DNA from: Ardenticatenales bacterium
GTDB taxonomy: Bacteria; Chloroflexota; Anaerolineae; Epilineales; Epilineaceae
Direction of reading: 5' to 3'
Length of the DNA: 64,000 nucleotides
NCBI GenBank assembly: GCA_020853525.1
Contig: JADYYS010000026.1
Span: 62,001 to 126,000 of the forward strand
In this document: positions 13,257-19,611 of the stretch, one piece after another
How the letters are laid out: every line of letters starts with the position of its first letter
Numbering within the stretch: the stretch's first letter is position 1
Program-made: the position numbers and the translations under genes
Notes under the pieces: model-generated
What the model was told of the DNA's origin: nothing
Database searches by the model: none
Seen by the model: the letters and a program-made list of their open reading frames with translations, nothing else

Positions 13257-13988
13257 ATGCTCCCCCCGACGCCCGGCCTCCCCGCTTCGCCAGGACGGTC
13301 CGTCGCCGACCGCCTCGAGCGCACGGCCCGCGACGCCGTCGCCACCCGTGCCGTCGGCGCCGCACTCGGCCGCTGCCTGCCGCGCGGTGCGCTCGTCACG
13401 CTGTCCGGCGGTCTCGGCGCCGGCAAGACGACGTTCGCACAGGGCATCGCCGGCGGCCTCGGGGTCACGGGGCGCGTTGCCAGTCCAACCTACACGATCC
13501 TCCACGGCTACGCGCTGCGTGCGCCGCGGGTCGGACCGGGTGAGCCTCCGGCGGCGGGCACCGTTCGACCCGCGGCTGCCGCTGCGCTCGACCCGGAAGC
13601 CGGGCAGTTCGTGCACGTCGACTTGTACCGCGTCCGCTCGGCCGTCGAGGCGCTCGAGCTCGGCCTCGACGAGTGCCGCGCCGACGGCGATGTCGTCGTC
13701 GTCGAGTGGCCCGAGCATGCCGACGGCGCACTGGGCGAAGCGGACGTCGCGGTGACGCTGGTCGAGATCCTGGGGCCGGACGAACGGCCCGACGCGGACC
13801 GCGAATCGGACCGCGAATCGGATCGCGAATCGGATCGCGTTGCGGTCGGCGATGCGCCCGATGGCGCCGATTCCGGCCGGCTCGAAGCGCCCACCGAACG
13901 CCGCATCGTCCTCACCGCCTCGACCGAAGCCGGGCGATCGATCCTTGCCTGCTTCGCCACGGATGGGCCGCAGCGTGCCCGCTCGTGA
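13257..13988 (+). CDS. tsaE: tRNA t6A biosynthesis ATPase TsaE
   Basis: 243 residues, longer than the usual ~150. Walker A SGGLGAGKTTFAQG near residues 44-57, the TsaE-specific VASPTYTILHGY, then after an inserted loop HVDLYRVRSAVEALELGL and VVVVEWPEH. TsaE binds the TsaB-TsaD complex and drives turnover in making threonylcarbamoyl-A37 of ANN-decoding tRNAs. Two insertions explain the size: about 30 residues after PTYTI, and a repeated DRES run (12-bp DNA repeat, 13797-13840) near 180. The start is the ATG directly downstream of TATAAT. The next gene encodes its partner TsaB, 10 bp after this stop. Confidence 0.93.
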   Translation: MLPPTPGLPASPGRSVADRLERTARDAVATRAVGAALGRCLPRGALVTLSGGLGAGKTTFAQGIAGGLGVTGRVASPTYTILHGYALRAPRVGPGEPPAAGTVRPAAAAALDPEAGQFVHVDLYRVRSAVEALELGLDECRADGDVVVVEWPEHADGALGEADVAVTLVEILGPDERPDADRESDRESDRESDRVAVGDAPDGADSGRLEAPTERRIVLTASTEAGRSILACFATDGPQRARS

Positions 13989-13998
13989 GGCAGCCCCG

Positions 13999-15171
13999 GT
14001 GAACGCCGGCACGTGGCTGGCCATCGACACGGCGACGGACATGGCCGGCATCGCGGTTTGCCGTGCGGAGCGCGTCGTCAGCGAGCGCACGTGGTCGAGC
14101 CGCCGCCACCACACGCGCCAGCTGGCGCCGGCCGTCGCCGACGCGCTGGCAGAGGCCGGCCTTGGCGTCGCGGACCTGGAGGGCATCGCGGTGGCGATCG
14201 GGCCGGGCTCGTACACCGGACTGCGGATCGGGCTCAGCTTGGCCAAGGGGCTTTCGCTCGGCGCTGCCCATGCCCGCCCGGGCGGGCGGCCGGTGGCCGT
14301 CATCGGCATCCCGACGCTGGACATCGTGGCCGCACCGCTCTCGCCGCCCGAGGGCGTGCGCATGGTGCCGCTCTGGGCGGTGCTGGAAGCCGGCCGCGGC
14401 CGCGTGATCGCCGCGCGCTACGGGGCGGACGGCGGGGGGAGCGACCGGCCGGACGCCCGGACGTTGGTGGTCTGGACGGTCGATGATCTCGTCCATCGCG
14501 TCGCGCCCGGTGACTGGGTGGCCGGCGAGCTGTCGGCGGAGGCGCGCGCCGCGCTCGAGGCAACGGGGGCGCGCGTGCTGCCGGCGGCGGCGGGTCTGCG
14601 GCGACCGGGCTGGCTGGCGCACCTCGGCCGGCAGCAGCTGCACCACGGCCCGCCGCCCGACATGGCGGCACTCTCACCGATTTACAGCGGCGGCCAGCCG
14701 GCCCCGCCGCCGCTGCCGTCCGCCGCCGTCGTGGTGCGCCCGATGACCGCCGACGACGTTGCGGCCGTCACGCAGCTGCACGACCGCGCGTTCATGCGCG
14801 TCCTCGATGCACAGCACTTCAGCCGCGAGCTGACGAACCCGATCGCCACGACGGTCGTGGCGGTGCTCGGCGACGGCTCGATCGTCGGATTCGCCGGGCT
14901 GTGGCGGCAGGTCGACGAAGGCCACGTGATGACGATCGGCGTCGAGCCGCGGCTCCAGAGCCGCGGGATCGGCGGACGCCTGCTGGCGCGCCTCGTCGAC
15001 ATCGCGGCGGCGGACGGGCTGGCCGCGCTCACGCTCGAGGTGCGCGACGGTAACGCGGCCGCGCAGGCCCTCTACCGGCGCTTCGGCTTCGAGGTCGTCG
15101 GCCGTCGCCCGCGCTACTACTCGGACACGGGCGAGGACGCGCTGATCATGACGCGGCGCATCTCGGCCTGA
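13999..15171 (+). CDS. tsaB-rimI: TsaB-RimI fusion: t6A biosynthesis protein joined to GNAT acetyltransferase
   Basis: 390 residues. Residues 1-235 are TsaB (LAIDTATDMAGIAV, LAPAVADAL, GPGSYTGLRIGLSLAKGLS), the scaffold that pairs with TsaD for threonylcarbamoyl transfer to tRNA. From about 240 a GNAT domain begins (VVVRPMTADDVAAVTQLHDRAF); its acetyl-CoA loop is QSRGIGGRLL and it ends LEVRDGNAAAQALYRRFGF, as in RimI, which acetylates the N-terminal Ala of ribosomal protein S18. tsaB and rimI are often neighbours; here they are one protein. The GTG at 13999 with TGAGG 8 nt upstream is preferred; a GTG at 13975 overlapping tsaE is the alternative. tsaD is not nearby. Confidence 0.9.
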   Translation: MNAGTWLAIDTATDMAGIAVCRAERVVSERTWSSRRHHTRQLAPAVADALAEAGLGVADLEGIAVAIGPGSYTGLRIGLSLAKGLSLGAAHARPGGRPVAVIGIPTLDIVAAPLSPPEGVRMVPLWAVLEAGRGRVIAARYGADGGGSDRPDARTLVVWTVDDLVHRVAPGDWVAGELSAEARAALEATGARVLPAAAGLRRPGWLAHLGRQQLHHGPPPDMAALSPIYSGGQPAPPPLPSAAVVVRPMTADDVAAVTQLHDRAFMRVLDAQHFSRELTNPIATTVVAVLGDGSIVGFAGLWRQVDEGHVMTIGVEPRLQSRGIGGRLLARLVDIAAADGLAALTLEVRDGNAAAQALYRRFGFEVVGRRPRYYSDTGEDALIMTRRISA

Positions 15172-15228: not shown

Positions 15229-15267
15229 GCGGCGACGCCGGATGGGATCCATCCGGCGTCGCGCCGC
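15229..15267. terminator. Bidirectional terminator after tsaB-rimI and the first small peptide gene
   Basis: Long stem: GCGGCGACGCCGGATGG (15229-15245) pairs with 15249-15267 with a two-base bulge and a 3-nt loop. Read on the minus strand the stem is followed by ATTTAATCG, a U-rich tail rare in this sequence, so it suits the end of the minus-strand peptide transcript as well as tsaB-rimI. Confidence 0.7.
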
Positions 15268-15364: not shown

Positions 15365-15442
15365 TCAGTTGCCCGAGAAGCCGAGCGTCTCGCACCAAGC
15401 CAGCAGAAGCATGACCGTCAGAATGATGATTCCAGTGCTCAT
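15365..15442 (-). CDS. 25-residue hydrophobic peptide, paralogue 1
   Basis: ATG with GGAGG 7 nt upstream (15450-15454), 25 codons, TGA stop. The peptide is one hydrophobic segment (GIIILTVMLLLAW) followed by CETLGFSGN, predicted to cross or insert in the membrane. It aligns without gaps from the initiator Met to the peptides at 15657-15740 and 16082-16159; invariant in all three are M1, I7, T9, L13, L14, A15, C17, L20, G21 and S23. A GTTCGGT/ACCGAAC inverted repeat lies at 15473-15495, and a hairpin with a U-rich tail follows the stop. Not recognised as a known family; size and layout recall Ibs/Ldr type I toxins. Function unknown. Confidence 0.6.
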   Translation of the reverse strand: MSTGIIILTVMLLLAWCETLGFSGN

Positions 15443-15656
15443 GTCCAAACCTCCAAATGGTGTGCGGTGGTCGTTCGGTGCCCGTGAAACCGAACCAATC
15501 GACCCATCGGTCCGGGCATCGACGCCGTGTTCGTGAGCACTATGACGTCATCTAACCGCAATGGATACGCGAGCGGTTCAACGAATCGTCGGTACCCGTC
15601 CCTGCGTCGCACGGACCACGCCGAAACGCGAATCTGCGGTCAAGCAGGGGCGCACG

Positions 15657-15740
15657 CTACGAGGCATCCCCGCTGCGGCCGAGCATCTCGCACCACGCCA
15701 ACAACAGGACCATCGTCACGATCACGAGCATGCTTTCCAT
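15657..15740 (-). CDS. 27-residue hydrophobic peptide, paralogue 2
   Basis: ATG preceded by AAAGGGG, 27 codons, TAG stop. Reads MESMLVIVTMVLLLAWCEML then GRSGDAS. It shares 14 of 25 aligned positions with paralogue 1, including the run LLLAWCE, at the same distance from the start codon. The frame is open further upstream, but the similarity begins exactly at this Met, which fixes the start. It is separated from paralogue 1 by 214 bp and from paralogue 3 by 341 bp, so each is probably its own transcript. GTATCC (minus strand, 15816-15821) lies 76 bp upstream; the other two genes have the same hexamer upstream. Function unknown. Confidence 0.6.
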   Translation of the reverse strand: MESMLVIVTMVLLLAWCEMLGRSGDAS

Positions 15741-15919
15741 CGTTCGATCCCCTTTCCCGCGGCCATGGCGCCACGGGTTGCCCCTTCGCCCGTTAGAACG
15801 CGCCGCACCGCAGCCGGATACGGCCGGAAATGAGTGCCCGCCAAGCGTTCGCCGTGGTCGCCGTGAGGACGATGCGTCGCGGACGACGACCGGTCCCCGA
15901 AGGCGTCGGGGCAAAGAGA

Positions 15920-15950
15920 GACGCCGCCGGGCAACATGCTCGGCGGCGTC
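15920..15950 (-). terminator. Terminator of small peptide gene 3
   Basis: Perfect 10-bp stem GACGCCGCCG (15920-15929) / CGGCGGCGTC (15941-15950) with an 11-nt loop. On the minus strand it is followed by TCTCTTTG, a pyrimidine/U-rich tail, placing it as the end of the transcript from 16159. Confidence 0.65.
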
Positions 15951-16081
15951 CATTCTCGGGTCCGGCGTCCGACCGCAATGGGCGCGGTCGACAGCGGAAG
16001 CTCAAACTCGATCCGAATTCGGTTGGAATCGCCTCGCGGCGATGGGGCGGCCGCCGGTGCGGCCGACTCGGAGCGAGCGGC

Positions 16082-16159
16082 CTACTGCTGCGAGAGGCCG
16101 AGGCCATCACAGGCCGCCAACAGCACCATCACGGTCAAGATCACGAGTCCAGTTGCCAT
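16082..16159 (-). CDS. 25-residue hydrophobic peptide, paralogue 3
   Basis: ATG with GGAGG 6 nt upstream (16166-16170), 25 codons, TAG stop. Hydrophobic core GLVILTVMVLLAAC followed by DGLGLSQQ. It matches paralogue 1 at 15 of 25 residues; many of the codon differences are silent or conservative, which points to selection on the protein. The Trp of the AWCE motif is Ala here and Glu is Asp, but the Cys is kept. GTATCC (minus strand, 16228-16233) lies 69 bp upstream, and a hairpin terminator follows at 15920-15950. Function unknown; a small membrane peptide or type I toxin-like product is the working idea. Confidence 0.6.
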   Translation of the reverse strand: MATGLVILTVMVLLAACDGLGLSQQ

Positions 16160-16304
16160 CACGGTCCTCCAATGCGTCGGTCAGAATCAACCCAATGTGC
16201 GTGATAGGACGCAGGACGACCCACTGCGGATACGCGGTACACCTGACGCGCCGCTGACCGCCGCCTGACGCATCCCGTTCGCGTCCCTTTGACCGACGCA
16301 GACG

Positions 16305-16832
16305 TCAGGCCATGACCCCCACGAGCAGCGCCGCCGCCGCCCCGATCGCCCCGCCCGCGGCGACGTCCGTCGCGAAGTGCACCCCGAGCCGCATCCGGGC
16401 GTACGCCACCGCCGCGACGACCGCCGCGAGCACCCACCACGGCGGCACGAACGGCACGCCGGCCGGCGCGGCCAGGCGGGCGAGCGCGACGGCGGTGTAG
16501 ACGACCTGTGCGGTGTGGCTGCTCGGGAACGACGAGTCCGGCGGCCGCCCGCCCACCCTGGACACGCCGCCGACGACCTCGTACGGCCGCCGCCGCCGCG
16601 TCGCCGCCTTGAGGACGAACGCCACCGCCCGCACCGCCACCGCGCCCGCGAGCGCCCACAGGACGGGCGGCGCGAAGTCGACGGCCCACGCTGCGGCGCA
16701 CCACAGCGCAACGTGCGCCGGGAACAGGCCGAGGTGACTCACGAGGCGGACGACGGGCTCGAGCGCCGCGGGCAGCGGGTGGTTGCGGAGCGTGTGGGCG
16801 ATGCGGTGGTCGAGGGCGACGAGGGGGTTCAT
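16305..16832 (-). CDS. PAP2-family membrane phosphatase
   Basis: 175 residues from the ATG at 16832 (MNPLVALDHRIAHTL); the frame extends upstream over arginine-rich, non-membrane sequence that is not credible. The three PAP2 phosphatase motifs are present: KAATRRRRP (KX6RP), PSSHTA and ARMRLGVHFATD (SRX5HX3D with Ala for Ser). Five to six membrane helices. Enzymes of this type dephosphorylate lipid phosphates such as undecaprenyl-pyrophosphate or phosphatidate; the specificity is not readable. Divergent from the YfhO-like gene, starting 142 bp away. Confidence 0.88.
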   Translation of the reverse strand: MNPLVALDHRIAHTLRNHPLPAALEPVVRLVSHLGLFPAHVALWCAAAWAVDFAPPVLWALAGAVAVRAVAFVLKAATRRRRPYEVVGGVSRVGGRPPDSSFPSSHTAQVVYTAVALARLAAPAGVPFVPPWWVLAAVVAAVAYARMRLGVHFATDVAAGGAIGAAAALLVGVMA

Positions 16833-16961
16833 GGGTACCGGTGCCTTCGGGGTGGTCGACCGCGACGCGTTCGCGGGGATCCGCGGCTGCAGTCGCCGCC
16901 TGGGGTGCCTTGCGGGCCGCCGCGCGCCGGCAAAAGGCAGGCGCCAAGTCGTCGGCAATGG

Positions 16962-16967
16962 TACCCT
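16962..16967 (+). promoter_or_regulatory. Possible -10 box, leaderless arrangement (YfhO-like gene)
   Basis: TACCCT ends 7 nt before the ATG at 16975, the same spacing as at tsaE, the M28 peptidase and the DinG-like gene. Weak alone; supported by the recurring pattern. Confidence 0.4.
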
Positions 16968-16974
16968 ACGCCGC

Positions 16975-19611
16975 ATGTCCCCCCGCCTCGCCCGCCTGCG
17001 CCCGCTCGCCCCGCCCGCCGCGTGCCTCGCCCTGGCCATCGTGCTGCTCTGGCCGGCGCTCACGCCCAAACTTGCAGATCGCCTCTACATCGGCGGCTCG
17101 GGCGAGGACTTCCTGCGGCAGGTCTTCCCGTGGCGCGCGTTCGTGGCGGGCACGTGGGCCGGCGGCAAGGTGCCGCTGTGGAACCCGCACCAGTACGCCG
17201 GCACGCCGGCGTTGGCCGATCCGCAGCTGGCCGTGCTCTATCCGTGGCGGCTGCTGCAGATCCCGTTCGCCGTCGGCGGCCGCACGCTGCCGCTGTGGAC
17301 GGTCACGGTCGAGGCCGTGGCGCACCTGGCGCTCGGCGCGTTCTTCACGGGCGCCCTCGCCCGCCGCCTCGGCGCCTCGCGCCCCGCCGCCGCCCTCGCG
17401 GCCGCCACGTTCGGTGCCGGCGGCTACCTGACGGGCTATCCGATCGTCCAGCTGGCGGTGCTCGACACGGCGGTGTGGCTGCCCGGGACGCTGACAGCGC
17501 TCGTCGCGGCGACAACAGGGGCGGCGACGACGGGGGCGACGACGACGACGGGGGCGGCGCGGCGGCGGTGGGCGGCGATGGCGGCGGTCGCGACGGCGCT
17601 GGCCGTGTTCGCGGGACACGCGCAGACGGCCGGGTTCGTCGTGGCGGCGGGGATGCTCTGGCTCCTCGCCGCGTGCGCGCGCCTTGTGCGCCCTGACGGA
17701 CCTGCGCCGGCGGCGGCGGATGGGGCTGCAGCGTCGTCGGCACGAATCACCGTGATTTCGGCACAGATCACAGGGAAATCGGCGCCGATCGCTGTGGATC
17801 GCGCGCCGATCGCGTCCCAACTTGGCGCGACCGCGGCGACGGGCGCGATCTGGCTGGCGCTCGCCGCCACGCTGTCGGCCGTCCAGTGGGGCCCGACGCT
17901 CGCGTTCGCCCGCCAGGCCTCGCGCACGCTCAGCGCGGGCGAGGTGCTGGCCGGTCTGCCGGTCCGCGACATCGTCCAACTCTTCGCACCACACGTCGTC
18001 AGCCAGTGGTCGCCGCTCTACGTCGGCATCGTGCCGCTCGTGCTCGCGCTCTGGGGCGCGCTGCGCGCCCGGACCGGCCGCTTCTGGCTCGCGCTGGCCG
18101 CCGGCGCGTGGCTGTTCGCCCTCGGCGGCAACGGCCCGTTGTTCCCGGTGCTCCTGAAGGTCGTCCCCGCGTTCGCGACGTTCCGCCACCAGGAGCGTGC
18201 GGCCGTCCTCGTCGCCGTCGGCCTGGCCGTCGCCGCCGCGCTGTCGCTGGACGCTGCCGTCGCGCGCCGGCGTGAGGTCGGGCGCGTGTTCGCGGGTGTG
18301 TGGGCCGTCGCGACGGCCGGCGCCCTGATCGCCCAGCTGGGGTTCGCTCAACTCGATTGGGCCGACGCCCTGACGTTCACCGCCCTCATCGCAGTCGCCG
18401 CATCAATCGTCTGCCTCGCCCCGCGCCGCTTCGACGCGCGCGTCGCGACGCTCGCCCTCGTCGCGATCACGGTCTTCGACCTCGCCAGCACGAACCGCGG
18501 CCGCGCGCTCGGCCACGCCGACGCGGCGGCGCTCGACGCCGCGGCCGACCCGCGCGCGGCGGCGCTGCTGCCGCATGCGCGCGAGGGGCGCGTGAGCACG
18601 GAAGGGCGGCTGTCGGCCGGGCCGAACGCGGCCAGCGTGCTCGGGCTGTACGACGTGACGGGGGACAGCCCGCTGCACTTCAAGGCCGTCGAGGACCTCG
18701 TCACGACGGCGCCGGAGATCGTGTGGTGGAAGATATTGGGGGTGCGGTATGCGGTGACGGAGCCGCGGAAGGGGGCGGAGGGGCTGTTGAAGCCGTTGGC
18801 GGATGCTGACAACAGCGAGAGGGCGGGTCTGAGACCCGCCCCTACACGATCGAACCGGGGCGACACGGCCGCGACAGCCAACGTGAACGGGAACCACGAC
18901 GTCGAACCGGGCAGCCGGGCGAACGACACAGGCGGCGTAGGGGCGGGTCTGAGACCCGCCCCCACACGGGCGAACTCGGGCGAAACGACGGGACCGTCCA
19001 CCGCCGGGCAAGCGTTCGAGGTGCAGTTGCTGGGCGCGCCGGCTTGGTTCGTCCCGCGACTAGAGGTGGTTGAGGGTCCGTGGACGCCCGAGCCGGACTT
19101 CAATCCATACCGAGTCGGAATCGTTGCCAGCCTGCCCGGTGAACCGCGCGATGGTCTGGCCGTGCGGCGCACGCCAAACGCCCCGCCCATGGACCTTGCG
19201 GCGCTCGCCGACGGCATAGCAAACACGACGCGACTCGTCGCATTGGAGCCGGGCCGGATCGCCGTCGACCTGCTCAGCGACCGGCCGGGATGGCTTGCCC
19301 TCTCGACGGCCGCCGACCCTGCAGGCGGCTGGGTAGCGCGGGTGACGACTTGGTCAATTTCGGGCGATGGCACCGTCGCGCCATCATCCGCGACGACGAT
19401 GCCCCCCGTGTTCATCCTCGACCGCGCAATCCTCGGCGTGAACATCCCCACCGCCGGCCTCTCGCGCATCGAATGGACCTACCGCCCCCGCTCCGTTACC
19501 CTTGGCGCCTGGCTCACGCTGCTGGGCCTCGTCGGTCTCGTCGCACTGCTGGGAGAAGAACGATGGCAGCGATGGCGGGAGCGCCCGCGGGTGCGTCGGA
19601 CATCGCGGTAA
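16975..19611 (+). CDS. YfhO-like polytopic membrane protein (probable glycosyltransferase-related)
   Basis: 878 residues. It begins with a signal-anchor helix, then the YfhO-family region LRQVFPWRAFVAGTWAGGKVPLWNPHQYAG and ALADPQLAVLYP, followed by about ten membrane helices to roughly residue 520 and a large outside domain ending in a last helix (LGAWLTLLGLVGLVALLGE). YfhO proteins are linked to sugar modification of lipoteichoic acid or other envelope glycans; that role here is inference. Two in-frame palindromic repeats (18821-18841 and 18940-18962) each encode AGLRPAPTR in the outside part, apparently tolerated insertions. A Thr/Ala-rich stretch near 17510-17560 and a degenerate repeat at 17746-17815 are also low complexity. 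Overlaps nadK by 49 bp. Confidence 0.75.
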   Translation: MSPRLARLRPLAPPAACLALAIVLLWPALTPKLADRLYIGGSGEDFLRQVFPWRAFVAGTWAGGKVPLWNPHQYAGTPALADPQLAVLYPWRLLQIPFAVGGRTLPLWTVTVEAVAHLALGAFFTGALARRLGASRPAAALAAATFGAGGYLTGYPIVQLAVLDTAVWLPGTLTALVAATTGAATTGATTTTGAARRRWAAMAAVATALAVFAGHAQTAGFVVAAGMLWLLAACARLVRPDGPAPAAADGAAASSARITVISAQITGKSAPIAVDRAPIASQLGATAATGAIWLALAATLSAVQWGPTLAFARQASRTLSAGEVLAGLPVRDIVQLFAPHVVSQWSPLYVGIVPLVLALWGALRARTGRFWLALAAGAWLFALGGNGPLFPVLLKVVPAFATFRHQERAAVLVAVGLAVAAALSLDAAVARRREVGRVFAGVWAVATAGALIAQLGFAQLDWADALTFTALIAVAASIVCLAPRRFDARVATLALVAITVFDLASTNRGRALGHADAAALDAAADPRAAALLPHAREGRVSTEGRLSAGPNAASVLGLYDVTGDSPLHFKAVEDLVTTAPEIVWWKILGVRYAVTEPRKGAEGLLKPLADADNSERAGLRPAPTRSNRGDTAATANVNGNHDVEPGSRANDTGGVGAGLRPAPTRANSGETTGPSTAGQAFEVQLLGAPAWFVPRLEVVEGPWTPEPDFNPYRVGIVASLPGEPRDGLAVRRTPNAPPMDLAALADGIANTTRLVALEPGRIAVDLLSDRPGWLALSTAADPAGGWVARVTTWSISGDGTVAPSSATTMPPVFILDRAILGVNIPTAGLSRIEWTYRPRSVTLGAWLTLLGLVGLVALLGEERWQRWRERPRVRRTSR
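18821..18841. repeat. Palindromic repeat inside coding sequence, copy 1
   Basis: Perfect 10-bp arms GGGCGGGTCT and AGACCCGCCC around one G. With its flank (CCCTACACGATCGAACCGGG) it forms a unit of about 50 bp repeated at 18940, translated in frame as AGLRPAPTRSNRGD. Confidence 0.9.
18940..18962. repeat. Palindromic repeat inside coding sequence, copy 2
   Basis: Arms GGGGCGGGTCT and AGACCCGCCCC around one G, followed by CCACACGGGCGAACTCGGGC, the same flank as copy 1 with several changes. Translated as GAGLRPAPTRANSGE. Copies are 119 bp apart. Confidence 0.9.

What the first reader, a model, noticed from the sequence alone, without database searches (positions are those of the whole stretch)
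15365..16159. Three tandem paralogous 25-27 residue membrane peptides in an otherwise empty 1.1-kb region
Between tsaB-rimI and the PAP2 gene there is no normal gene, yet three short minus-strand frames (15365-15442, 15657-15740, 16082-16159) each have a ribosome-binding site and align without gaps from the start Met: M1, I7, T9, L13, L14, A15, C17, L20, G21, S23 are invariant, and pairwise identity of paralogue 1 to 2 and 3 is 14-15 of 25. Each seems a separate transcript; two have clear hairpin terminators. The hexamer GTATCC occurs 121, 76 and 69 bp upstream of the three starts. Tandem tiny hydrophobic peptides recall the Ibs/Ldr type I toxins, but the conserved Cys-acid-x-Leu-Gly tail is not one I know.
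Basis: partly seen in the sequence, partly recalled or inferred. Interest (0 to 1): 0.82.

Follow-up and report, generated by a model that had tools for sequence, protein, structure and literature searches.

The report
Unannotated family of tiny membrane peptides
A stretch of bacterial chromosome that looks empty holds three copies of a 25-residue membrane peptide; the same peptide family recurs, under selection, in related Anaerolineae bacteria but is absent from every family library searched, so it is a real and unnamed gene family whose function (membrane regulator or mild toxin) has still to be tested.

Summary
Three minus-strand ORFs (15365-15442, 15657-15740, 16082-16159) in a 1.13-kb intergenic region encode paralogous 25-27-aa single-TM peptides. 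A profile built only from other genomes ranks exactly these three first among 1401 short window ORFs. Homologues occur in 6 of 7 genomes held of the same order (1-4 copies each) and one MAG of another order. None was found in phages, plasmids or viral contigs, and no Pfam, NCBIfam, PHROGs, PADLOC or Rfam family matches. Orthologue pairs show purifying selection (pN/pS 0.21-0.33). Copies lie in three recurrent chromosomal settings, so inheritance looks largely vertical. Most copies have a Shine-Dalgarno site and a downstream hairpin terminator; a CGTATC element precedes 6 of 14. Signature: M-x-[ST], 10-12 hydrophobic residues, then W-C-[DENQ]-[T]-x-G, with R/K at the end in most relatives but not in the window copies. 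Best reading: a new family of stand-alone single-pass membrane microproteins, probably N-out/C-in, presenting the W-C tail to a partner at the cytoplasmic face. Main rival: type I toxin (tiny, hydrophobic, tandem, monocistronic), but no antisense-RNA signature was found and toxicity is untested. The family is well supported; its function is inferred.

The parts
15365..15442 (-). Peptide 1, MSTGIIILTVMLLLAWCETLGFSGN (25 aa)
   Evidence: orthologue in G001 80% identical
15657..15740 (-). Peptide 2, MESMLVIVTMVLLLAWCEMLGRSGDAS (27 aa)
16082..16159 (-). Peptide 3, MATGLVILTVMVLLAACDGLGLSQQ (25 aa); Ala in place of the family Trp
15450..15454 (-). Shine-Dalgarno GGAGG of peptide 1
   Evidence: sequence
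15749..15753 (-). weaker Shine-Dalgarno-like AGGGG of peptide 2
   Evidence: sequence
16166..16170 (-). Shine-Dalgarno GGAGG of peptide 3
   Evidence: sequence
15563..15569 (-). CGTATCC upstream element of peptide 1
15816..15822 (-). CGTATCC upstream element of peptide 2
16228..16234 (-). CGTATCC upstream element of peptide 3
15232..15262 (-). 14-bp perfect hairpin with tail CGCATTTAA, probable terminator after peptide 1 (T-run modest; possibly also ends peptide 2 read-through)
15920..15950 (-). hairpin followed by TCTCTTTG, probable terminator after peptide 3
13840..15171 (+). context: TsaB-RimI ORF (TsaD/TsaB-like plus GNAT domains), convergent with the peptide genes; same neighbour in two other genera of the family
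16305..17069 (-). context: PAP2 phosphatase-family frame upstream of peptide 3

Best explanation
These are three copies of a new family of stand-alone membrane microproteins (23-27 aa). Shown or strongly indicated by sequence: they are genes under protein-level selection, with ribosome-binding sites, most copies followed by their own terminator, duplicated within genomes and inherited at a few conserved chromosomal places. Inferred: each peptide inserts as one short helix in the cytoplasmic membrane, N-terminus out (neutral or acidic) and C-terminus in (R/K-rich in most relatives), leaving the tail W-C-[D/E/N/Q]-[T]-x-G at the cytoplasmic interface. The tail and one helix face would bind a larger membrane protein or sister peptides and tune its activity when the peptide's own promoter is induced, as known small regulatory membrane proteins do. 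The diverged paralogues would serve different conditions or partners.
For: Independent profile picks exactly the three. Homologues in 6 of 7 genomes of the order and in one MAG of another order. pN/pS 0.21, 0.28, 0.33 for orthologue pairs with near-saturated synonymous sites, third-position bias, no stops although 40-46% of simulated equal divergences gain one. Conserved W-C/G positions in 15 members; hydrophobic core mean KD 2.2-2.9 over 15 residues. Downstream hairpin plus T-run beats all shuffles in 8 of 14 units and strong hairpins follow two more; RBS. Three recurrent settings: beside tsaB/rimI in three genera, divergent from an LTD-domain secreted protein in G004, G005, G006, near a DUF123 gene in G005 and G006. 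Retention of specific residues at conserved sites, no match in phages, plasmids or viral contigs and lack of an antitoxin signature favour a host function over an addiction module.
Against: No expression data; no partner identified; no neighbouring gene common to all members. Topology is inferred from charge only, and the window's own peptides have no net positive tail. Trp and Cys are each lost once (window peptide 3; G004 member). Tandem, monocistronic, intergenic organisation is equally typical of type I toxins.
Confidence: 0.5

Rival explanations
1. A new family of type I toxins: each peptide depolarises the membrane when made, and an unrecognised antisense or trans RNA keeps its translation low.
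For: Tiny, hydrophobic, single TM; tandem and multi-copy in intergenic DNA; own promoter region and terminator. ZorO was found by searching for exactly such tandem small hydrophobic proteins, type I toxins usually have a cytosolic, positively charged C-terminus and several carry a Cys (PMC8309996). Ldr repeats are three in tandem (PMC4147584).
Against: No direct repeat between upstream DNA and the 5'UTR above shuffles apart from the paralogous ORFs themselves and one 11-nt match in G004, i.e. no sign of an IstR/OrzO-type divergent sRNA; no consistent antisense terminator; no Rfam family; mRNA folding and SD pairing not unusual across members; no mobile-element association; window copies lack the positive tail. 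A cis-overlapping Sib-like antisense RNA is not excluded by any of this.
Confidence: 0.33
2. Small constitutive subunits of a membrane complex (like CydX or KdpF), genetically unlinked from their complex.
For: Size and single TM; protein-level conservation.
Against: No shared operon or neighbour; 1-4 diverged copies per genome, stand-alone; no Pfam/NCBIfam match.
Confidence: 0.1
3. Minimal lipoproteins (entericidin-like): the Cys is a lipidated +1 residue and the hydrophobic stretch a signal peptide.
For: Peptide 3 reads LLAAC-D, a valid lipobox; weak NCBIfam hits to entericidins (E 0.06, 0.22).
Against: 14 of 15 members have W before the Cys/Ser, which a lipobox does not allow; no positive n-region; one member has Ser for Cys.
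Confidence: 0.04
4. Chance ORFs, or non-coding RNAs whose ORFs are incidental.
For: Short frames; no expression data.
Against: Codon-level selection, independent profile recovery, homologues in related genera and families.
Confidence: 0.03

Closest known systems
Ibs/Sib, Ldr/Rdl and Zor/Orz type I toxin-antitoxin loci of E. coli
   Same: 19-35-aa hydrophobic single-TM peptides, tandem or multi-copy, intergenic, independently transcribed
   Different: No sequence similarity found; conserved W-C-[D/E/N] tail; no antitoxin RNA signature detected; conserved at chromosomal loci across families of one bacterial order
Small regulatory membrane proteins (e.g. AcrZ, MgtS, KdpF, CydX; from own knowledge)
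   Same: Single-TM, about 25-50 aa; AcrZ- and MgtS-type genes stand alone and act by binding a larger membrane protein
   Different: No homology to the Pfam or NCBIfam models; no partner known; several paralogues per genome
Entericidins EcnA/EcnB
   Same: Tandem small membrane-associated peptides with a C-[N/D/E]-T motif after a hydrophobic stretch
   Different: No lipobox in 14 of 15 members, no positive n-region, only weak sub-threshold matches

Membership tests
Type I toxin (Ibs/Ldr/Zor class) | Short (<60 aa) hydrophobic peptide with one predicted TM segment | tested here: met
   23-27 aa, best 15-residue KD 2.2-2.9
Type I toxin (Ibs/Ldr/Zor class) | Stand-alone transcript, often tandem copies in intergenic DNA | tested here: met
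   Tandem in G000, G001, G005; terminators; peptide 2 lacks its own terminator; transcripts are predicted, not measured
Type I toxin (Ibs/Ldr/Zor class) | Antisense/trans RNA antitoxin complementary to the toxin mRNA | tested here: inconclusive
   No divergent-sRNA complementarity signature, no consistent antisense terminator, no Rfam hit; a fully overlapping antisense RNA cannot be seen this way
Type I toxin (Ibs/Ldr/Zor class) | mRNA structure that hides the ribosome-binding site | tested here: inconclusive
   SD unpaired probability 0.13-0.66, no consistent MFE z-score, transcript ends assumed
Type I toxin (Ibs/Ldr/Zor class) | Overexpression arrests growth or depolarises the membrane | not testable with these tools
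   needs experiment
Type I toxin (Ibs/Ldr/Zor class) | Sequence homology to a named toxin family | tested here: not met
   No Pfam, NCBIfam, PHROGs or PADLOC match of weight
Entericidin / minimal lipoprotein | Lipobox [LVI][ASTVI][GAS]C and positive n-region | tested here: not met
   Trp precedes the Cys/Ser in 14 of 15 members; N-terminal charge 0 or -1
KdpF/CydX-type subunit | Gene in the operon of its complex | tested here: not met
   Different neighbours, stand-alone units
KdpF/CydX-type subunit | Match to the Pfam/NCBIfam model | tested here: not met

The most novel reading that the evidence does not exclude
A previously unrecognised, protein-conserved family of stand-alone ~25-aa membrane regulators, defined by a cytoplasmic juxtamembrane W-C-[D/E/N]-[T]-x-G tail that docks on a specific membrane target, kept as several diverged paralogues per cell under a shared promoter element (CGTATC), and missed because the genes are too short to be annotated.
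Probability: 0.4. Interest if true: 0.65.

Novelty: new member of a known kind. Interest (0 to 1): 0.5.

Why it matters
It adds a selected gene family with a recognisable motif to Chloroflexota, a phylum whose microproteins are little studied, and shows that a 25-aa gene can be followed across families of an order by profile and synteny. The conserved Trp-Cys tail gives a concrete target for point mutants, and the tandem paralogues make toxin versus regulator directly testable with one induction experiment.

Tried and rejected
Lipoprotein reading (only peptide 3 fits a lipobox). Leader/attenuator peptide: no gene consistently follows, terminators end the unit, and the window copies converge on rimI. 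Functional link to the LTD-domain secreted protein: divergent from the peptide in G004/G005/G006, but the LTD family is multi-copy and its other copies lack peptides, so it marks synteny only. Divergent antisense sRNA by direct-repeat search: nothing convincing. Genome-wide regulon of CGTATCCN(3,4)GYGG: 10 sites against 8 for the control pattern, the others checked mostly inside long frames; uninformative. Class- and phylum-wide profile hits in long frames, e.g. a lipoprotein signal peptide in G672, rejected. Weak hits with short frames in G199 and G443 left as unproven. De novo motif search beyond CGTATC barely beat shuffles.

Full report
What was checked. Their alignment has the ten invariant columns claimed and 14/25 and 15/25 identities. 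Peptides 1 and 3 have GGAGG 6-7 nt before ATG; peptide 2 has a weaker purine run. Hairpins that look like terminators follow peptide 1 (15232-15262) and peptide 3 (15920-15950) but not peptide 2, so the units are P3 alone, then P2 and P1, possibly together. In the window CGTATC occurs 15 times on the two strands; judged by position against the listed ORFs, the only ones in clear intergenic DNA are the three upstream of these starts.

Is it real? In its own genome the three-row profile finds only these three (next E 1.27). In relatives it finds G001 (E 1.9e-11), two places in G002, G006 and G005. Widening the profile gives 14 members: G000 three, G001 two in tandem, G002 two, G005 four (two in tandem), G006 two, G004 one. 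G003 has none detectable at 83% completeness. One MAG of another order (G331, 63% complete) has MDTVLLMMVLCMLLVWCATEGSAGR with a TTG start (E 1e-5 with a profile that did not contain it); contamination or horizontal transfer cannot be excluded. About 396 genomes of the class and 400 of the phylum gave nothing else convincing; strong-looking exceptions lie in long frames such as a lipoprotein signal peptide. A profile made without any window sequence ranks the three peptides first, second and third among 1401 short window ORFs, with the next hit at E 4.9. G001 is named 'Anaerolineae bacterium isolate OFTM155', so the lineage is Chloroflexota, Anaerolineae.

Is it coding? Peptide 1 and its G001 orthologue differ at 22 of 72 nucleotides, 14 of them third positions; pN/pS is 0.21, and none of 5000 random placements of as many changes kept as many residues (19 of 24). 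G005/G006 pairs give 0.28 and 0.33 (P 0.009 and 0.03). Synonymous sites are near saturation while the frame stays open. Paralogue pairs in the window are also constrained (0.55).

Anatomy. Fifteen members: Met; one to three small polar or acidic residues, usually [S/E/D]T; 10-12 hydrophobic residues; then L-[VAL]-W-C-[D/E/N/Q/S/A]-[T]-x-G and a short tail ending in R/K in most copies outside the window genome. Trp is lost once (window peptide 3), Cys once (G004, Ser). N-terminal charge is 0 or -1; the tail is up to +2 in G005/G006 but 0 or -1 in the window genome. By the positive-inside rule (established knowledge) this suggests N-out/C-in, more safely for the relatives than for the window copies. 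Most units carry a sense-strand hairpin terminator: 8 of 14 beat all shuffles, two more have strong hairpins. A CGTATC element lies 75-127 nt upstream in 6 of 14 (binomial P 2.6e-7 before allowing for the choice of hexamer and for one orthologous pair); G001's first copy has CGTACC. Whether it is a promoter or an operator is unknown.

Setting. Copies sit beside tsaB/rimI in three genera of the family (G000, G001, G002). In G004, G005 and G006 a copy is divergent from a secreted LTD-domain protein (37% identity G005/G004, 60% over the C-terminal part G006/G005). In G005 and G006 a copy lies near a DUF123 gene. This is largely vertical inheritance with duplication. No member was seen in phages, plasmids or viral contigs.

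How it works. Shown by sequence: protein-coding, selected, stand-alone, duplicated, strongly hydrophobic. Inferred: one membrane helix, cytoplasmic W-C tail. The choice between regulator and toxin rests on indirect signs. For a toxin: size, tandem copies, monocistronic units, and the C-terminal charge and Cys listed as common features of type I toxins (PMC8309996); ZorO was found with the same search logic. Against: no complementarity of the divergent-sRNA kind, no consistent antisense terminator, no hidden-SD pattern, no Rfam antitoxin, no mobile-element link, and conservation of particular residues at conserved chromosomal sites across families. I put regulator-type microprotein at about 0.5 and type I toxin at about 0.33. 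Overexpressed hydrophobic peptides can be harmful in any case (PMC9860968, notes membrane depolarisation by de novo small hydrophobic proteins), so a toxicity test needs physiological expression.

Known families. No Pfam, NCBIfam, PHROGs, PADLOC or PDB-sequence match of weight. The weak entericidin hits (E 0.06, 0.22) reflect a hydrophobic stretch before Cys; the lipobox test fails in 14 of 15. The family is therefore new as a family, while the kind of thing, a single-TM microprotein gene, is known.

Noticed in passing
window 13840-15171 +: TsaB and RimI domains lie in one 443-aa ORF here (a possible fusion), whereas in G001 (L039) the corresponding tsaB end and rimI appear in different frames.
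   Followed up: partly
L044:2452-4485 -, L042:2104-4212 -, L062:2735-4735 +: A multi-copy family of secreted proteins (N[PG]xFEG-type domains plus C-terminal Lamin Tail Domain) is present in all 7 genomes of the order; one copy is divergent from a peptide gene in G004, G005 and G006.
   Followed up: partly
L170:3838-3915 -: A clear family member with a TTG start in a MAG of another order (G331), between an amidase and an AAA/LuxR-like gene: wider spread, horizontal transfer or MAG contamination.
   Followed up: partly
window 15563-15569, 15816-15822, 16228-16234 -: CGTATCC upstream element followed by G(C/T)GG after 3-4 nt; CGTATC is also upstream of copies in G001, G005 and G006. No known promoter or operator was identified for it.
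   Followed up: partly
L090 (G199:C738:27098-27133), L116 (G443:C692:7663-7710): Very short frames containing ...LLLVWCSKFQYLS and SIISIALLITWCNTYGSWAQPST in other lineages: possible distant members or chance.
   Followed up: no
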